6,187 bases of DNA from assembly GCA_903839795.1 (NCBI GenBank), contig CAIMDR010000325.1, positions 1 to 6,187 on the forward strand. Direction: 5' to 3'. The position numbers were made by a program, and so were the translations under genes. Below, in pieces: positions 1,429 to 6,187 of this stretch (positions within the stretch are counted from its first letter, which is position 1; each line of letters begins with the position of its first letter). The DNA is from an uncultured Methylococcaceae bacterium (lineage in GTDB: Bacteria > Pseudomonadota > Gammaproteobacteria > Methylococcales > Methylomonadaceae). The notes beneath the pieces are model-generated. The model was not told where the DNA came from. It saw only the letters and a program-made list of their open reading frames with translations, and did no database searches.

Positions 1429-1702
1429 ACTTGTATATGAGACGATAACCATAAACGCAAGCAATACCGCATAGATAACCCCTATCGTTGAAAAAATAAA
1501 TCCAGCGACATCGTTATGGGATTTAAGTCTGTGGAAGGGAATAAAGCGCCTGACCAGAAAAAGCGATCCTACAGTTATTCCGAGGAATAACCCAATCAAT
1601 AAAATCGCTAACGGGGTACTTGGAATGTAAAACAACAACCATTGATTTAGCGTCATTTGTTTCTCCTTTACTAAAGGTAAATATTCAAGCTCCCTTACTT
1701 TG

Positions 1703-1774
1703 CTCCCTTGAAAGAGGGTGACTGAGGGGGATTTATTTAAAAAATCTCCCCTAAAATCTTTTTTTCAAAGGGGA
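1703..1774. repeat. Large imperfect palindrome, CCCCTTTGAAA type
   Basis: The left arm runs CTCCCTTGAAAGAGGG then GAGGGGGATTT. The reverse complement of the right arm runs ATCCCCTTTGAAAAAAAG then TAGGGGAGATTT. The two arms match imperfectly around a centre near 1740. The left arm also holds a small CCCT/AGGG hairpin (1705-1708 with 1715-1718). Located between two minus-strand genes, it could work as a terminator-like structure for the upstream gene (1797-2030), but its shape and G/C blocks suggest a dispersed palindromic repeat. Confidence 0.55.
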
Positions 1775-1796
1775 TGGACTGAATAATTACCAGCTT

Positions 1797-2030
1797 TTAA
1801 AGTTCGCATTCTAATCGTTCACAGAGTTCATCAAGCTCGGCAGCCAATTTTTTACTGCTACAATGGTTACACGCTGCTGCCACATAGCCAACTAAATTCT
1901 TAAGTTCCTCATACTCTATGTCTATGGTTTTTCTTCGCATATTCAGTAATTGAACACGCATGTCTTTTGATGCCTCATACCAATATTCATTAATGAGTTG
2001 CTTCTGACGATTATCAAGTTGTATTCTCAT
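1797..2030 (-). CDS. Small helical hypothetical protein with four cysteines
   Basis: This is a 77-residue protein starting at ATG 2030; an in-frame TGA two codons upstream fixes the start. The Shine-Dalgarno is weak (GAGA around 2040). The sequence is soluble and predicted mostly helical: an N-terminal basic and aromatic stretch (RQKQLINEYWYEASKDMR, 8-25), a polar middle (RRKTIDIEYEELKNLVGYV, 32-50), and an acidic end (ELDELCERLECEL, 65-77). Cysteines lie at 54, 57, 70 and 75, in a C-x2-C ... C-x4-C arrangement that could bind a metal or simply be chance. No family is recognised. It is divergent from the membrane protein gene at 2139 and lies upstream of the DUF4239 remnant on the same strand, separated from it by a palindromic repeat. 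Confidence 0.6.
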   Translation of the reverse strand: MRIQLDNRQKQLINEYWYEASKDMRVQLLNMRRKTIDIEYEELKNLVGYVAAACNHCSSKKLAAELDELCERLECEL

Positions 2031-3042: not shown

Positions 3043-5955
3043 ATGGCTGTCACTGTTAATTTCAATACCCTTCGTCAACGCGCCAGTCAGTTTGCCAAGG
3101 ATTTTGAAGGAGTCACCTCAGAAAAAGAGCGCGATCAAGATTTTATGCGGGGATTTTGCAAAATATTTGGCATTAATCCCAACCGTATTGACTGGCAATA
3201 CAAGGTTAAGGAAATCGACAAGGCCGGCAAAAAATCCACGACAACCTTCATCGATGGCGTCTTGCGCGGCATGATGCTGATGGAGATGAAGTCAGCCGGT
3301 AAAGACCTGGATGACGCTTACCTCCAAGCCAGCCGCTACGCGAGTTTGATGAACGAACAAGACCGGCCGGATTATATTCTGGTCAGTGATTTTGCCAACC
3401 TGCATTTATACAACCGCCTGACCGGTGTGCCACGTATTGAGCTTAAACTGGCCGACTTACCGCAACAAATAGAACCTTTCCTGTTTTTGGCAAACTATGA
3501 AACCATCGCCATTGAACAGCAAGTGCATATCAACAAAGAAGCCGCCGAAACCATGGCCAAGTTGCATGATGCGCTTAAAGCCACCGGTTACAATGGCAAA
3601 GATTTAGAAACCTATCTGGTGCGTTTGTTGTTTTGCCTGTTTGCTGAGGACACCGGCTTGTTTGGTGAAAACGGTGAGTTTCTCGATTATCTGTTCAATC
3701 ATACCCAAGCCGATGGTTCCGATTTACACGGCAGTTTGATGTCTTTGTTTGATACCTTAAACAAGCCGGATGACAGTTATTTACAAGAATACGCTAATTA
3801 TACCGGTGCTAAACGCTTAAAAAATCTGCCCGAACATCGCGCCAAGTTTCCTTACATTAACGGCCAGCTTTTTGCAGGCACTTTGGCCGAATGTTGTTTT
3901 GACGAAGCGGCCAGAAAAACCCTGATTGACTGCGCCAACTTGGATTGGAGTCATATCAGTCCGGCTATTTTTGGTTCCTTGTTTCAAGCCATCATGCACT
4001 TTGAGGATGAAGCCGCAGCCGCCAAAAGTAAAAAACGCCGTGAGTTTGGTGCCCATTACACCAGTGAAGAAAATATTCTTAAAGTGATCAATCCCTTGTT
4101 TATGGATGACTTGCGTAAGGAATTTGCAAAGTGCGGTAAAAACGCCGCCAAGTTAGGCGCTTTTCATAATCGTTTGGCCGCCTTTAATTTTTTTGATCCG
4201 GCTTGTGGTTGCGGAAACTTCCTGGTTATTGCTTACCGTGAATTACGCTTGTTGGAGCTGGAAGTTATCCAAAAGCTGTTTGGTAAAAACCTGACCGCCC
4301 AGCTCGATGTTGATACGCTCATCCGTTGCAATGTGGATCAATTTCACGGTATCGAAATAGACGACAGCGCCGCGCAAATTGCCACGGTCGCCTTATGGCT
4401 AACCGACCATCAAATGAACACCAAGGTGCAAAGTCTCGGACTTTATTACCACCGCATTCCCTTGGTAAAAAAAGCCAATATCGTTTGCGCCAATGCCTTG
4501 CGGATTGATTGGAATGAGGTGATTCCTGCTGAACAGTGCAGTTTTATCATGGGTAATCCGCCGTTTGTGGGTTACAGTTATCAAAGCAAAGATCAAAAAG
4601 CCGATCTTGCCACTGTGTTTAAAGGCATGAAGGGTGCGGGTGTGTTGGATTTGGTGGCGGCTTGGCATATTACCGCTGCGCGTTATATTCAGGCCAATCC
4701 TAAAATCCCCGTTGCCTTTGTGTCCACCAACAGCCTGACCCAAGGCGGACAAGTTGCATTATTATGGACAGAGCTATTGAAGCTCAATATCAAATTGCAT
4801 TTTGCCCACCGCACGTTTCGTTGGAGTAATGAAGGCAAAGGCGTAGCTGCTGTGCATTGTGTCATTATGGGTTTTGCAACCGTAGGAGAGGCTTTAGCCT
4901 CGACAATCGAGGCTAAAGCCTCTCCTACGGTTTGTCGCCTGTTCGATTATGGTGACGACATCACAGGCGAGCCGATTGAAATTCAAGCCAAACAGATTAC
5001 TCCCTATTTGGTCGATGCGCCGACTGTGCTAATTGATAAACGCCGTAAGCCATTAAATCCTGATATGCCTGAAATGACTTATGGTAATAAACCCACCGAT
5101 GGCGGAAATTTGCTGCTATCACAAGAAGAAGCTGATTTCATCCACAAAAACGATCCTATAGCCTTAAAATACCTGCGTCAATTTTTAGGTGCGGATGAGT
5201 TTATTAACAATCTGCCGCGTTACTGTCTGTGGCTTAAAAAAAGCACAGCACAAGATCGTAAATCATCGCCTGAAATTCAACGACGCATGGAAGGTGTGAA
5301 AGCTATGCGCTTAGCCAGTCCAAAACTACCTACGAAACAAATGGCAGAAATACCGTATTTATTTGGTCAAATTCGCCAGAAAGACCAACCATATTTGTTA
5401 ATTCCAAGCACTTCGTCTGAACAACGAAACTTTGTGCCATTAGGTTACTTTCAATCCGATGTTATTTGTAGTAATGCTAATTTCATGCTTCCAAACGCCA
5501 GTCTTTTTCATTTTGGGATACTTAGTTCTACTTTCCATAATGCGTGGCTTCGAGCAGTTTGCGGACGACTTAAGAGTGATTACCGTTATTCCAACACCAT
5601 CGTCTACAACAATTTCCCGTGGCCGCAAACCATCAACCCCACTCAACAAGCGAAAATCGAAACCGCAGCCCAACTTGTTTTAGATGCCCGTACTGCTGAA
5701 GAAAACCGTTGTGCCGAACAAGGCCAAAAATGTTCACTGGCCACGTTATACGCCGCTGGCAATATGCCGACCGATTTATTGAAAGCCCACGCCCAACTCG
5801 ATAAAGCCGTCGATGCCGCCTACGGTTACAAAGGCGGCAAAGACGATGCTTCTCGGGTCGCTTTCTTGTTTGAGCAATACCAAAAACTGGTTTCTTTGCC
5901 ACAAACGCCACTACCAAAACCCACAATAAAACCAAGCAAAGCAACTAACAGGTAA
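3043..5955 (+). CDS. MmeI-like type IIL restriction-modification enzyme (nuclease, adenine methyltransferase and target recognition in one chain)
   Basis: This 970-residue protein is close to the ~920 typical of MmeI. It starts at ATG 3043 behind AAAGGA (3032-3037, five-base gap). The N-terminal nuclease domain (1-150) carries D71, E81 and K83, the exact D-x9-E-x-K spacing of the MmeI-type PD-(D/E)XK site. A helical connector follows (about 155-325). The gamma-class adenine-N6 methyltransferase shows the motif X region GAHYTSEENI (336-345), motif I DPACGCGNFL (385-394, a cysteine where serine is usual), acidic GIEID (436-440) and catalytic NPPF (505-508). The target-recognition domain spans about 631-860, ending at SDYRYSNTIVYNNFPWP, and is followed by a helical C-terminus. 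Known enzymes of this class methylate one strand of an asymmetric site and cut about 20 bases away, using S-adenosylmethionine for both. All key residues are present, so activity is expected. Two oddities: an in-frame palindrome at residues 612-630, and low GC in the target-recognition part. A BREX PglX-type methylase is less likely because of the intact nuclease site. Confidence 0.95.
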   Translation: MAVTVNFNTLRQRASQFAKDFEGVTSEKERDQDFMRGFCKIFGINPNRIDWQYKVKEIDKAGKKSTTTFIDGVLRGMMLMEMKSAGKDLDDAYLQASRYASLMNEQDRPDYILVSDFANLHLYNRLTGVPRIELKLADLPQQIEPFLFLANYETIAIEQQVHINKEAAETMAKLHDALKATGYNGKDLETYLVRLLFCLFAEDTGLFGENGEFLDYLFNHTQADGSDLHGSLMSLFDTLNKPDDSYLQEYANYTGAKRLKNLPEHRAKFPYINGQLFAGTLAECCFDEAARKTLIDCANLDWSHISPAIFGSLFQAIMHFEDEAAAAKSKKRREFGAHYTSEENILKVINPLFMDDLRKEFAKCGKNAAKLGAFHNRLAAFNFFDPACGCGNFLVIAYRELRLLELEVIQKLFGKNLTAQLDVDTLIRCNVDQFHGIEIDDSAAQIATVALWLTDHQMNTKVQSLGLYYHRIPLVKKANIVCANALRIDWNEVIPAEQCSFIMGNPPFVGYSYQSKDQKADLATVFKGMKGAGVLDLVAAWHITAARYIQANPKIPVAFVSTNSLTQGGQVALLWTELLKLNIKLHFAHRTFRWSNEGKGVAAVHCVIMGFATVGEALASTIEAKASPTVCRLFDYGDDITGEPIEIQAKQITPYLVDAPTVLIDKRRKPLNPDMPEMTYGNKPTDGGNLLLSQEEADFIHKNDPIALKYLRQFLGADEFINNLPRYCLWLKKSTAQDRKSSPEIQRRMEGVKAMRLASPKLPTKQMAEIPYLFGQIRQKDQPYLLIPSTSSEQRNFVPLGYFQSDVICSNANFMLPNASLFHFGILSSTFHNAWLRAVCGRLKSDYRYSNTIVYNNFPWPQTINPTQQAKIETAAQLVLDARTAEENRCAEQGQKCSLATLYAAGNMPTDLLKAHAQLDKAVDAAYGYKGGKDDASRVAFLFEQYQKLVSLPQTPLPKPTIKPSKATNR
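4878..4932. repeat. Perfect 26-base inverted repeat inside the restriction enzyme gene (REP-like element in frame)
   Basis: The arms 4878-4903 and 4907-4932 are exact reverse complements around the loop CAA. The core is GTAGGAGAGGCTTTAGCC, of the GTAGGAG-GGCTTTAGCC type that I know as a dispersed REP-like palindrome in gammaproteobacteria. It encodes residues ATVGEALASTIEAKASPTV (612-630) without a stop. The two other forward phases would contain TAG or TAA. It lies after the last methyltransferase strand (HCVIMGF, 605-611) and before RLFDYG (632-637), where family members, as I recall them, have only a short linker. In mRNA it would form a 26-pair hairpin. Confidence 0.92.
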
Positions 5956-5960
5956 CAATT

Positions 5961-6187
5961 ATGTACGCAGAAAAATTAAAGCACTTTGAAAACGTCGAAA
6001 ATTTAGGCGGTAAAGCATGGGAACACGCGGTAGCTATTGATCTGCTTGCTACCGTCAAATTAAAAGATTGCTCAATGCACTGCTTTCATTATCAACAGAT
6101 GTTAGAAATGTTGCTAAAGCATTTGCTGGAAACTAAAAGTATCTACGGCGCTTATCCACATACGCATAAACTTAATAAGTTATTGGA
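5961..6187 (+). CDS. HEPN-domain protein, N-terminal part (runs off the window)
   Basis: The start ATG 5961 lies five bases after the stop of the restriction enzyme gene. Its Shine-Dalgarno, AGGT (5950-5953), overlaps the last codon and stop of that gene, so translation is probably coupled. The 75 visible residues are helical. The segment HCFHYQQMLEMLLKHLLETK (40-59), followed by IYGAYPHTHKLNKLL (61-75), fits the HEPN pattern of an alpha helix rich in YH.QQ..E..LK..L, then a loop with P.THKL..LL. The HEPN catalytic R-x4-6-H motif normally comes in the C-terminal helix, which is beyond the window, so it is not known whether this is an active RNase or an inactive member. HEPN proteins are common as toxins (with MNT antitoxins) and as effectors in defence loci. 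As a co-transcribed partner of a type IIL enzyme it may act in abortive infection or as a regulator; that role is inferred. Confidence 0.7.
   Translation, partial: MYAEKLKHFENVENLGGKAWEHAVAIDLLATVKLKDCSMHCFHYQQMLEMLLKHLLETKSIYGAYPHTHKLNKLL

What the first reader, a model, noticed from the sequence alone, without database searches (positions are those of the whole stretch)
4878..4932. Mobile-type perfect palindrome carried in frame as a linker in a restriction-modification enzyme
A 26+3+26-base perfect inverted repeat forms part of an otherwise intact 970-codon gene. Only one of the three forward reading phases through it is stop-free, and that is the phase used. It falls at the methyltransferase/target-recognition boundary, adding about 19 residues (A612 to V630). 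This resembles the protein-coding palindromic elements described in Rickettsia (RPE), but here a REP-like element sits in a type IIL restriction enzyme. Perfect arm identity suggests a recent insertion or selection to keep the hairpin. The long mRNA hairpin might also affect translation or expression of the downstream HEPN gene.
Basis: partly seen in the sequence, partly recalled or inferred. Interest (0 to 1): 0.85.

Follow-up and report, generated by a model that had tools for sequence, protein, structure and literature searches.

The report
Restriction-enzyme loop collecting repeat palindromes
A short mirror-image DNA repeat sits in frame inside a bacterial restriction-enzyme gene, at a predicted flexible loop where related enzymes carry many unrelated repeats instead, so this loop is likely a recurrent landing place for small mobile DNA.

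Summary
The palindrome is real: 26+3+26 bases, perfect, in frame in an intact 970-codon MmeI-type (type IIL) restriction-modification gene, far beyond chance. Its core (4882-4928) is a head-to-head pair of GTAG-type REP repeats, dispersed and mostly intergenic in relatives. The unexpected part is the site. The linker between the methyltransferase and target-recognition domains is enlarged in 49 of the 119 best-listed homologues, nearly always by recurring repeat-like peptides. At DNA level about a dozen different palindromes occupy it, eight headed GTAG or GTGG. Genes 92-98% identical in protein on both sides carry unrelated palindromes there, and linker type barely follows the gene tree. Distant relatives fill two further loops (near residues 553 and 869); three hold a whole Vsr/DUF559-like nuclease domain in the 553 loop. 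Best reading: permissive loops of MmeI enzymes are recurrent in-frame landing sites with rapid turnover; the insertion mechanism and any function are inferred, not shown. In-frame GTAG REPs are already published (PMC3733652), including one same-site case in recB. This is a new variant of a known kind, at larger scale.

The parts
3043..5955 (+). MmeI-type (type IIL) restriction-modification gene, 970 aa, intact
   Evidence: Pfam MmeI_N, MmeI_hel, MmeI_Mtase, MmeI_TRD, MmeI_C over cut-off; PDB 5hr4 MmeI E 1.9e-280; fold match 5hr4 TMt 0.91
4878..4932 (.). perfect inverted repeat, arms 26 nt, loop 3 nt
   Evidence: shuffles
4882..4903 (+). REP unit 1, GTAGGAGAGGCTTTAGCCTCGA (GTAG head, GA, 6-bp stem, TT loop)
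   Evidence: dispersed in relatives
4907..4928 (-). REP unit 2, identical, inverted (GTAG ends outside: head-to-head dimer)
   Evidence: orientation terms from PMC3733652
4876..4932 (+). repeat-encoded linker peptide A612-V630 between MTase strand 604-613 and strand 631-635; predicted disordered at 618-620 and 623-628
   Evidence: AlphaFold2 model, pLDDT under 50 at 618-620 and 623-628
5961..6187 (+). downstream HEPN-like gene, cut by the contig end
   Evidence: PF05168 E 4.4e-4, 20.8 bits, just below its cut-off of 22

Best explanation
The 55-base palindrome is a head-to-head pair of GTAG-type REP repeats read in frame as the linker between the methyltransferase and target-recognition domains of an MmeI-type enzyme, and it most likely arrived by insertion into a predicted flexible loop that unrelated palindromic repeats have likely entered and replaced again and again. 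Shown: the repeat, its frame, its dispersed copies, the different palindromes at the same place in relatives, and close orthologues whose linkers are unrelated. Inferred: small hairpin repeats, probably moved by a REP transposase or by template switching during replication, insert at random or hairpin-prone sites. Only in-frame, stop-free insertions in loops that tolerate extra residues survive. In MmeI these are the linker and the loops near residues 553 and 869. Palindromes are prone to deletion, so one is lost and another takes its place. The peptide would act as a neutral spacer and the enzyme would stay active.
For: REP unit with up to 3 mismatches in 21 of 41 genomes, reversed control 0 in all 41. 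Of the 30 loci fetched from that hit list, 27 lie outside the MmeI gene, and 21 of these 27 (some overlap each other) are covered by no ORF of 120 aa or more. 49 of the 119 best-listed homologues have an enlarged linker. Among 133 DNA-backed ORFs, palindromes with arms of 11 or more fall 10 times in the linker and 4 times in the rest of the gene; collapsed to distinct elements 7 of 10, p 3e-9, and 6 of 9 without the window's own, p 7e-8. L184 and L074 are 98/93/98% identical in MTase/TRD/C-terminal protein and 95.3/94.2% in flanking DNA, with unrelated palindromes. 14 of 17 filled DNA-backed genes keep an open frame of 930 codons or more. Linker type on the MTase tree: 31 changes among 51 filled rows, 100 shuffles mean 37.4, minimum 33. 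The loop is predicted disordered. Two other loops are filled in distant relatives.
Against: No target-site duplication or precise empty site was identified. No GTAG-edged palindrome lies near the three Y1-transposase genes found in this genome, two of them close to a contig end. The GTAGGGGCGAAT element is single-copy in its own genome, and the AGGGATGTTATCCCTT element was seen only in the two MmeI genes of one genome, so not every linker palindrome is shown to be a dispersed repeat. Some filled genes are not intact: G010 is split near residue 735, L061 is a 457-codon frame, G012/G094 lack part of the methyltransferase, G004 has stops. Whether other proteins of these genomes are hit as often was not measured, so a special role of MmeI is unproven.
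Confidence: 0.72

Rival explanations
1. The hairpin is selected. A stable mRNA structure at the domain boundary would slow the ribosome so that the methyltransferase folds before the TRD, or would tune the message of the downstream HEPN gene; any strong palindrome serves, which is why the sequences differ.
For: RNA fold -57.7 kcal/mol, z -12.4, against z -1.8 and -2.0 for two neighbouring stretches. The three other linkers tried also fold (z -12.1, -4.1 and -4.2). One outer pair is C-G in the window and G-C in G012.
Against: 70 of the 119 listed homologues have no enlarged linker. The palindrome is kept in G012 and G094, whose gene has lost 239 codons of the methyltransferase. Some filled linkers have short perfect arms (L155 6, L164 5). 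Two other loops that are not the MTase/TRD boundary are also filled.
Confidence: 0.1
2. The loop is a DNA-level target: the transposase or the replication error prefers this sequence or an existing hairpin there, so each insert recruits the next.
For: Compound linkers such as VGEALAS...NKFAPT look like one element inside or beside another (P0005, P0014, P0015, P0016, P0019). REPs are known targets of insertion sequences (PMC3733652, passage).
Against: Inserted types start at differing distances after the conserved GGTTTT. The 553 and 869 loops have other sequences and are also hit. Compound linkers were seen as protein only.
Confidence: 0.12
3. Linkers travel with target-recognition domains when these are exchanged by recombination; the repeats are passengers or seams of domain shuffling.
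For: TRDs do differ between near relatives: window against G012 drops to 50-77% in 60-base blocks over 5063-5602 and returns to 92-100% after that. Linker type shows some tree signal.
Against: In that pair the drop begins 70-130 bases downstream of the palindrome. Linker type fits the TRD tree no better than the MTase tree (33 and 31 changes). L184/L074 keep both sides and differ in the linker.
Confidence: 0.05
4. Assembly or binning artefact.
For: The window is a 6.2-kb contig of an 83%-complete draft genome.
Against: Same palindrome at the same site in two other genomes; different palindromes at the site in many independent assemblies, e.g. a protein cluster of 28 sequences on 13 contigs (P0006).
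Confidence: 0.01

Closest known systems
Intragenic GTAG REPs (PMC3733652: start of abstract in a listing, passages, section 15 whole, section 17 part 1 of 2)
   Same: GTAG-headed palindromes, often head-to-head dimers, read in frame inside known proteins; authors suggest flexible linkers or loops; one case of different REPs at about the same site (recB of two Xanthomonas species)
   Different: Those are mostly scattered over unrelated genes. Here one loop of one enzyme family carries about a dozen element types in relatives, with turnover between close orthologues and two further loops used. 'restriction' and 'methylo' do not occur in its main text
Rickettsia palindromic elements, RPE (Ogata 2000, 2002; originals not read, one look-up failed; seen through passages of PMC10969869 and PMC3733652)
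   Same: Palindromic elements inserted in frame in protein genes
   Different: About 150 bp, ten families spread over unrelated genes of Rickettsia; here 47-55 bp for the window, many families in one gene family
MmeI, type IIL restriction-modification enzyme (PDB 5hr4; PMC4833311, passages seen)
   Same: Same domains, fold and motifs
   Different: MmeI itself has a short linker without the insert (alignment)
REP/TnpA-REP (RAYT) system (PMC8266576, search listing only)
   Same: REP hairpins; Y1-type transposase genes are present in this genome
   Different: No GTAG-edged palindrome found beside the three transposase genes examined here

Membership tests
GTAG REP (head-to-head dimer) | GTAG end, two unpaired bases (GW), short stem and short loop | tested here: met
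   GTAG-GA-GAGGCT-TT-AGCCTC at 4882-4901, inverted copy at 4907-4928 (sequence; definition). The 3-base tail was not compared
GTAG REP (head-to-head dimer) | dispersed, mostly extragenic copies in the host group | tested here: met
   21 of 41 genomes, control 0; 21 of 27 fetched non-MmeI loci not under an ORF of 120 aa or more
GTAG REP (head-to-head dimer) | high copy number in the host genome | tested here: inconclusive
   only 6 matches with up to 3 mismatches in an 83%-complete genome
GTAG REP (head-to-head dimer) | association with a RAYT gene flanked by the repeat | tested here: inconclusive
   three Y1 transposase matches in G000, no GTAG-edged palindrome (arms 7 or more) within 1.2 kb or up to the contig end; genome incomplete, and the source paper says such pairs may be lost
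Rickettsia palindromic element | about 150-bp element inserted in many unrelated genes | tested here: not met
   47-55 bp; among 27 fetched copies outside the MmeI gene, 21 lie under no ORF of 120 aa or more
MITE | terminal inverted repeats with target-site duplication | tested here: inconclusive
   no duplication recognised in pairwise alignments, but no precise empty site was available
Type IIL RM enzyme (MmeI family) | five MmeI domains and catalytic motifs | tested here: met
   D71, E81, K83, D385-L394 and N505-F508 invariant in A1; that D71/E81/K83 are the nuclease residues is recalled
Type IIL RM enzyme (MmeI family) | methylation and cleavage activity | not testable with these tools
   needs long-read modification calling or an assay

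The most novel reading that the evidence does not exclude
MmeI-type defence enzymes keep 'revolving-door' loops: hairpin DNA already in the loop attracts the next mobile palindrome, so unrelated repeat families, and even whole nuclease-coding elements, enter the same two or three loops of the same enzyme in frame, over and over, and reshape the spacing between methyltransferase and target-recognition domains faster than the rest of the gene evolves.
Probability: 0.25. Interest if true: 0.8.

Novelty: new variant of a known kind. Interest (0 to 1): 0.62.

Why it matters
In-frame palindromes in proteins were described as scattered cases in a few genomes. Here a single loop gives a replicated natural experiment: many different insertions at one place in one enzyme family, with close orthologues as controls. 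That makes it possible to test how REP-like elements insert, how they are lost and whether they cost anything. It also marks loops of MmeI enzymes that in nature accept from about 8 to about 150 extra residues, which is useful to those who engineer them.

Tried and rejected
Simple 'present in one, absent in relatives' insertion: rejected, since near relatives hold other palindromes. TRD exchange as carrier of the linker: weakened. RAYT next to the repeat: looked for, not found. L161 'NPTY' as a deletion scar of the GTAGGTTGGGTTGC element: considered, dropped as possible chance. The tree label F caught L161/P0038 wrongly; add a length condition. One search counts the window five times (L001, L002, L004, L033, L053) and G010 twice (L005, L020), and its L073 linker hit is native sequence, so I rely for linker counts. 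The 80 ortholog pairs are not independent (the same gene appears under P and L ids) and some, such as L069/P0103, compare two unfilled linkers. The ungapped upstream DNA figure of 51.1% for L177/L176 came from an indel; gapped it is 86.5%. Literature searches gave nothing nearer than PMC3733652; subscription papers are mostly not held.

Full report
Observation. The window holds one perfect inverted repeat far above background: arms 4878-4903 and 4907-4932, 26 bases against a best arm of 7-11 in 100 Markov shuffles. It lies inside an open 970-codon gene, 3043-5955. Codons 612-630 contain it. Of the three forward phases only the one used has no stop. As RNA the surrounding 91 bases fold at -57.7 kcal/mol, z -12.4.

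The gene. All five MmeI domains score above their Pfam cut-offs. The only solved relative found by sequence is MmeI, 5hr4, E 1.9e-280, and the AlphaFold2 model (mean pLDDT 84.9) matches it best, TMt 0.91. Residues at the nuclease and methyltransferase motifs are invariant in a 55-row alignment (the methyltransferase motifs are named in PMC4833311; the nuclease residues are recalled). The domain boundary is at the repeat: the Pfam MTase match ends at 612 and the TRD match begins at 659. In the model 618-620 and 623-628 have pLDDT under 50, between a strand at 604-613 and one at 631-635.

The repeat. 4882-4903 reads GTAGGAGAGGCTTTAGCCTCGA and 4907-4928 is its exact inverse. With up to 3 mismatches this unit occurs in 21 of 41 genomes searched, 6 times in this one, and the backward-read control finds none in any. 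Thirty loci were fetched out of the longer hit list. Three of them are the MmeI gene of the window or of G012; of the other 27, some of which overlap, 21 are covered by no ORF of 120 aa or more on either strand. GTAG ends outside, GA after the tag, a 6-bp stem and a TT loop fit the GTAG REP dimers described in PMC3733652. The three Y1-transposase matches of this genome have no GTAG-edged palindrome within 1.2 kb or up to the contig end. The assembly is 83% complete, so the mobilising enzyme is not identified.

Same site, other palindromes. Aligning the site in relatives showed the same element in G012, but GTAGGGGCGAATAAATTCGCCCCTAC in G010 (91% identical over residues 1-735, its frame split there), GTAGAGACGCGATTAATCGCGTCTCTAC in the broken gene of G004, and a GTCGGGTTA-type repeat in G003. 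The protein search passed 7,990 proteins and listed the best 120. Of the 119 besides the window, 49 have a linker of 28 or more residues where unfilled ones have 24-25. Repeat-like peptides recur there: VGEALAS..EAKASPT, VGAN..NKFAPT, CRDAINRVST, VGATLVA..DKSAPT, RDVIPSRDNIP, VGRVSDSVTR..NPTY, GGQALPDLQA, RGEKFFALTP, and compounds of these; in the set used for trees 49 of 51 filled rows fall under such a motif and 2 do not. At DNA level about a dozen linker palindromes are distinct, and 8 types begin GTAG or GTGG. Of 17 filled DNA-backed genes 14 keep a frame of 930 codons or more; L005, L007 and L061 do not, nor does G004.

Is the linker special? Of 157 aligned ORFs, 133 remained after removal of near duplicates; six loci that repeat the window or a REP copy had been left out beforehand and one row (L009) could not be indexed. 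Palindromes with arms of 11 or more and loops up to 12 number 14: 10 in the linker, 4 in the remaining gene. With arms of 10 or more the split is 12 to 14; with 9 or more, 15 to 40, where chance hits should weigh more. Counting relatives that share an element once, 7 of 10 fall in 27 of 876 codons (p 3e-9), and 6 of 9 without the window's own (p 7e-8). The site was chosen because a palindrome had been seen there, and an insert lengthens its own target, so these p-values are guides only.

Turnover. L184 (G049) and L074 (G050) are 98, 93 and 98% identical in protein over residues 400-611, 634-860 and 865-950 and 95.3 and 94.2% in DNA over 450 bases on either side, yet the linkers are a GTAGGAGCGGGCC dimer and a GGTAGGGGCGAAAAATTTTTCGCCC palindrome. 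L177/L176 (95 and 93% protein; 86.5 and 93.4% DNA) and L160/L158 (92 and 92%; 88.2 and 86.2%) behave alike. On a FastTree of the MTase part, linker type needs 31 changes among 51 filled rows; 100 label shuffles give a mean of 37.4 and a minimum of 33. On the TRD tree it is 33, shuffles mean 36.9 and minimum 33. So linker type carries a little inheritance and much replacement, and it does not follow the TRD.

Other loops. A search seeded with a deltaproteobacterial relative (L118, 48% identical) passed 7,999 proteins and listed 120: 8 with an enlarged linker, 31 with an enlarged loop near residue 553, 16 near 869, 6 with all three. In the first list the 553 loop is enlarged in 0 of 119 and the 869 loop in 13. 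Over all 246 aligned rows, extra stretches of 8 or more residues with widely varying length cluster at 549-554 (37 rows), 611-619 (43) and 860-871 (34), with smaller clusters near 126-130 (14) and 886-891 (17); those near 243 and 321 are almost all of one length and look like lineage indels. DNA palindromes with arms of 9 or more are seen at 553 in 9 of 150 rows and at 869 in 5 of 149, some of them close relatives, and near 888 in 0 of 148. In P0162, P0163 and P0196 the 553 insert contains a whole PF04480 domain. A class-level sample of 369 genomes gave 16 with strong matches. Of its loci, twelve linkers could be read as new (L215, L216, L219-L226, L228, L229; L214 and L218 repeat earlier loci by DNA, L217 gave no row and L227 no linker): all are short and none has an arm over 8. 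In the same set L215 has an arm-9 palindrome in the 553 loop, while the long 553 loops of L216 and L222 have none. So filling of the linker is common in the methanotroph group and its relatives, and was not seen in this wider sample.

Age and dispensability. G012 and G094 carry the same palindrome in a gene that has lost 239 codons of the methyltransferase; the two loci are 99.2% identical to each other over 2,720 bases. Between the window and G012, the 47-base core is unchanged while three 60-base blocks upstream are 88% identical. At that divergence an unchanged 47-mer has a chance of about 0.0025 (own arithmetic), so either the core was copied in recently on one side, or the arms are corrected against each other. 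One outer pair is C-G in the window and G-C in G012, which fits hairpin-templated correction as well as two separate insertions.

What is shown and what is inferred. Shown: repeat identity, frame, dispersed copies for the window's element, different palindromes at one site, orthologues with unrelated linkers, use of further loops. Inferred: transposition or template switching as source, loss and re-entry as the cycle, neutrality of the peptide, activity of the enzyme. Against my reading: for the two other element types whose copies I counted, dispersal in the host genome was not shown. GTAGGGGCGAAT... is single in G010, though exact copies lie in G049, G050 and G242 (10 of 18 genomes with up to 3 mismatches). 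AGGGATGTTATCCCTT... is only in the two MmeI genes of G238, in 1 of 8 genomes searched. The remaining types were not counted.

Host. By its relatives this is probably a methanotroph: G010's contig has the length of CAJAHC010000504.1, an uncultured Methylococcaceae bacterium, and one homologue is named Methylobacter sp. (P0014). The genus name is an inference.

Known or new. In-frame GTAG REPs are in print, with loops and linkers proposed as harmless sites and one same-site pair in Xanthomonas recB (PMC3733652). RPEs are the older precedent (passages of PMC10969869). My searches found no report of the MmeI loops; of their hits I opened only the three papers named here (PMC3733652, PMC10969869, PMC4833311) and saw the rest as listings, and the library lacks most subscription papers. 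I file it as a new variant of a known kind.

Noticed in passing
P0162, P0163, P0196 (553 loop): A whole Vsr/DUF559-like nuclease domain (PF04480), flanked by repeat-like peptides such as SPLARGRERAGGEG, lies inside the MTase part of MmeI-type proteins: possibly a nuclease-coding mobile element without splicing.
   Followed up: partly
window 5903-6187 against L054 (G012): The 3' end of the RM gene and the start of the HEPN gene are 100% identical in DNA to G012, while the RM gene upstream of the TRD is about 85-90% identical: a recent exchange of this end.
   Followed up: partly
L054 3310-3437 (G012): In G012 a second fragment of the TRD start lies about 1 kb downstream of the gene and begins almost exactly where the palindrome ends in the intact gene.
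   Followed up: partly
window 1697-1802; L057 3989-4082; L059 100-194: A stretch of about 95 bases is 78-84% alike near MmeI loci of G003 and G004: another dispersed repeat, not identified.
   Followed up: no
L154 and L176 (G238 contigs 51 and 29): Two MmeI genes of one genome share an identical 33-base linker palindrome found nowhere else in that genome with up to 3 mismatches: duplication or gene conversion.
   Followed up: partly
L184 and L074, 553 loop: The 553-loop insert is shared by these two orthologues while their linker inserts differ, so the 553 insert is probably older than the linker swap.
   Followed up: partly
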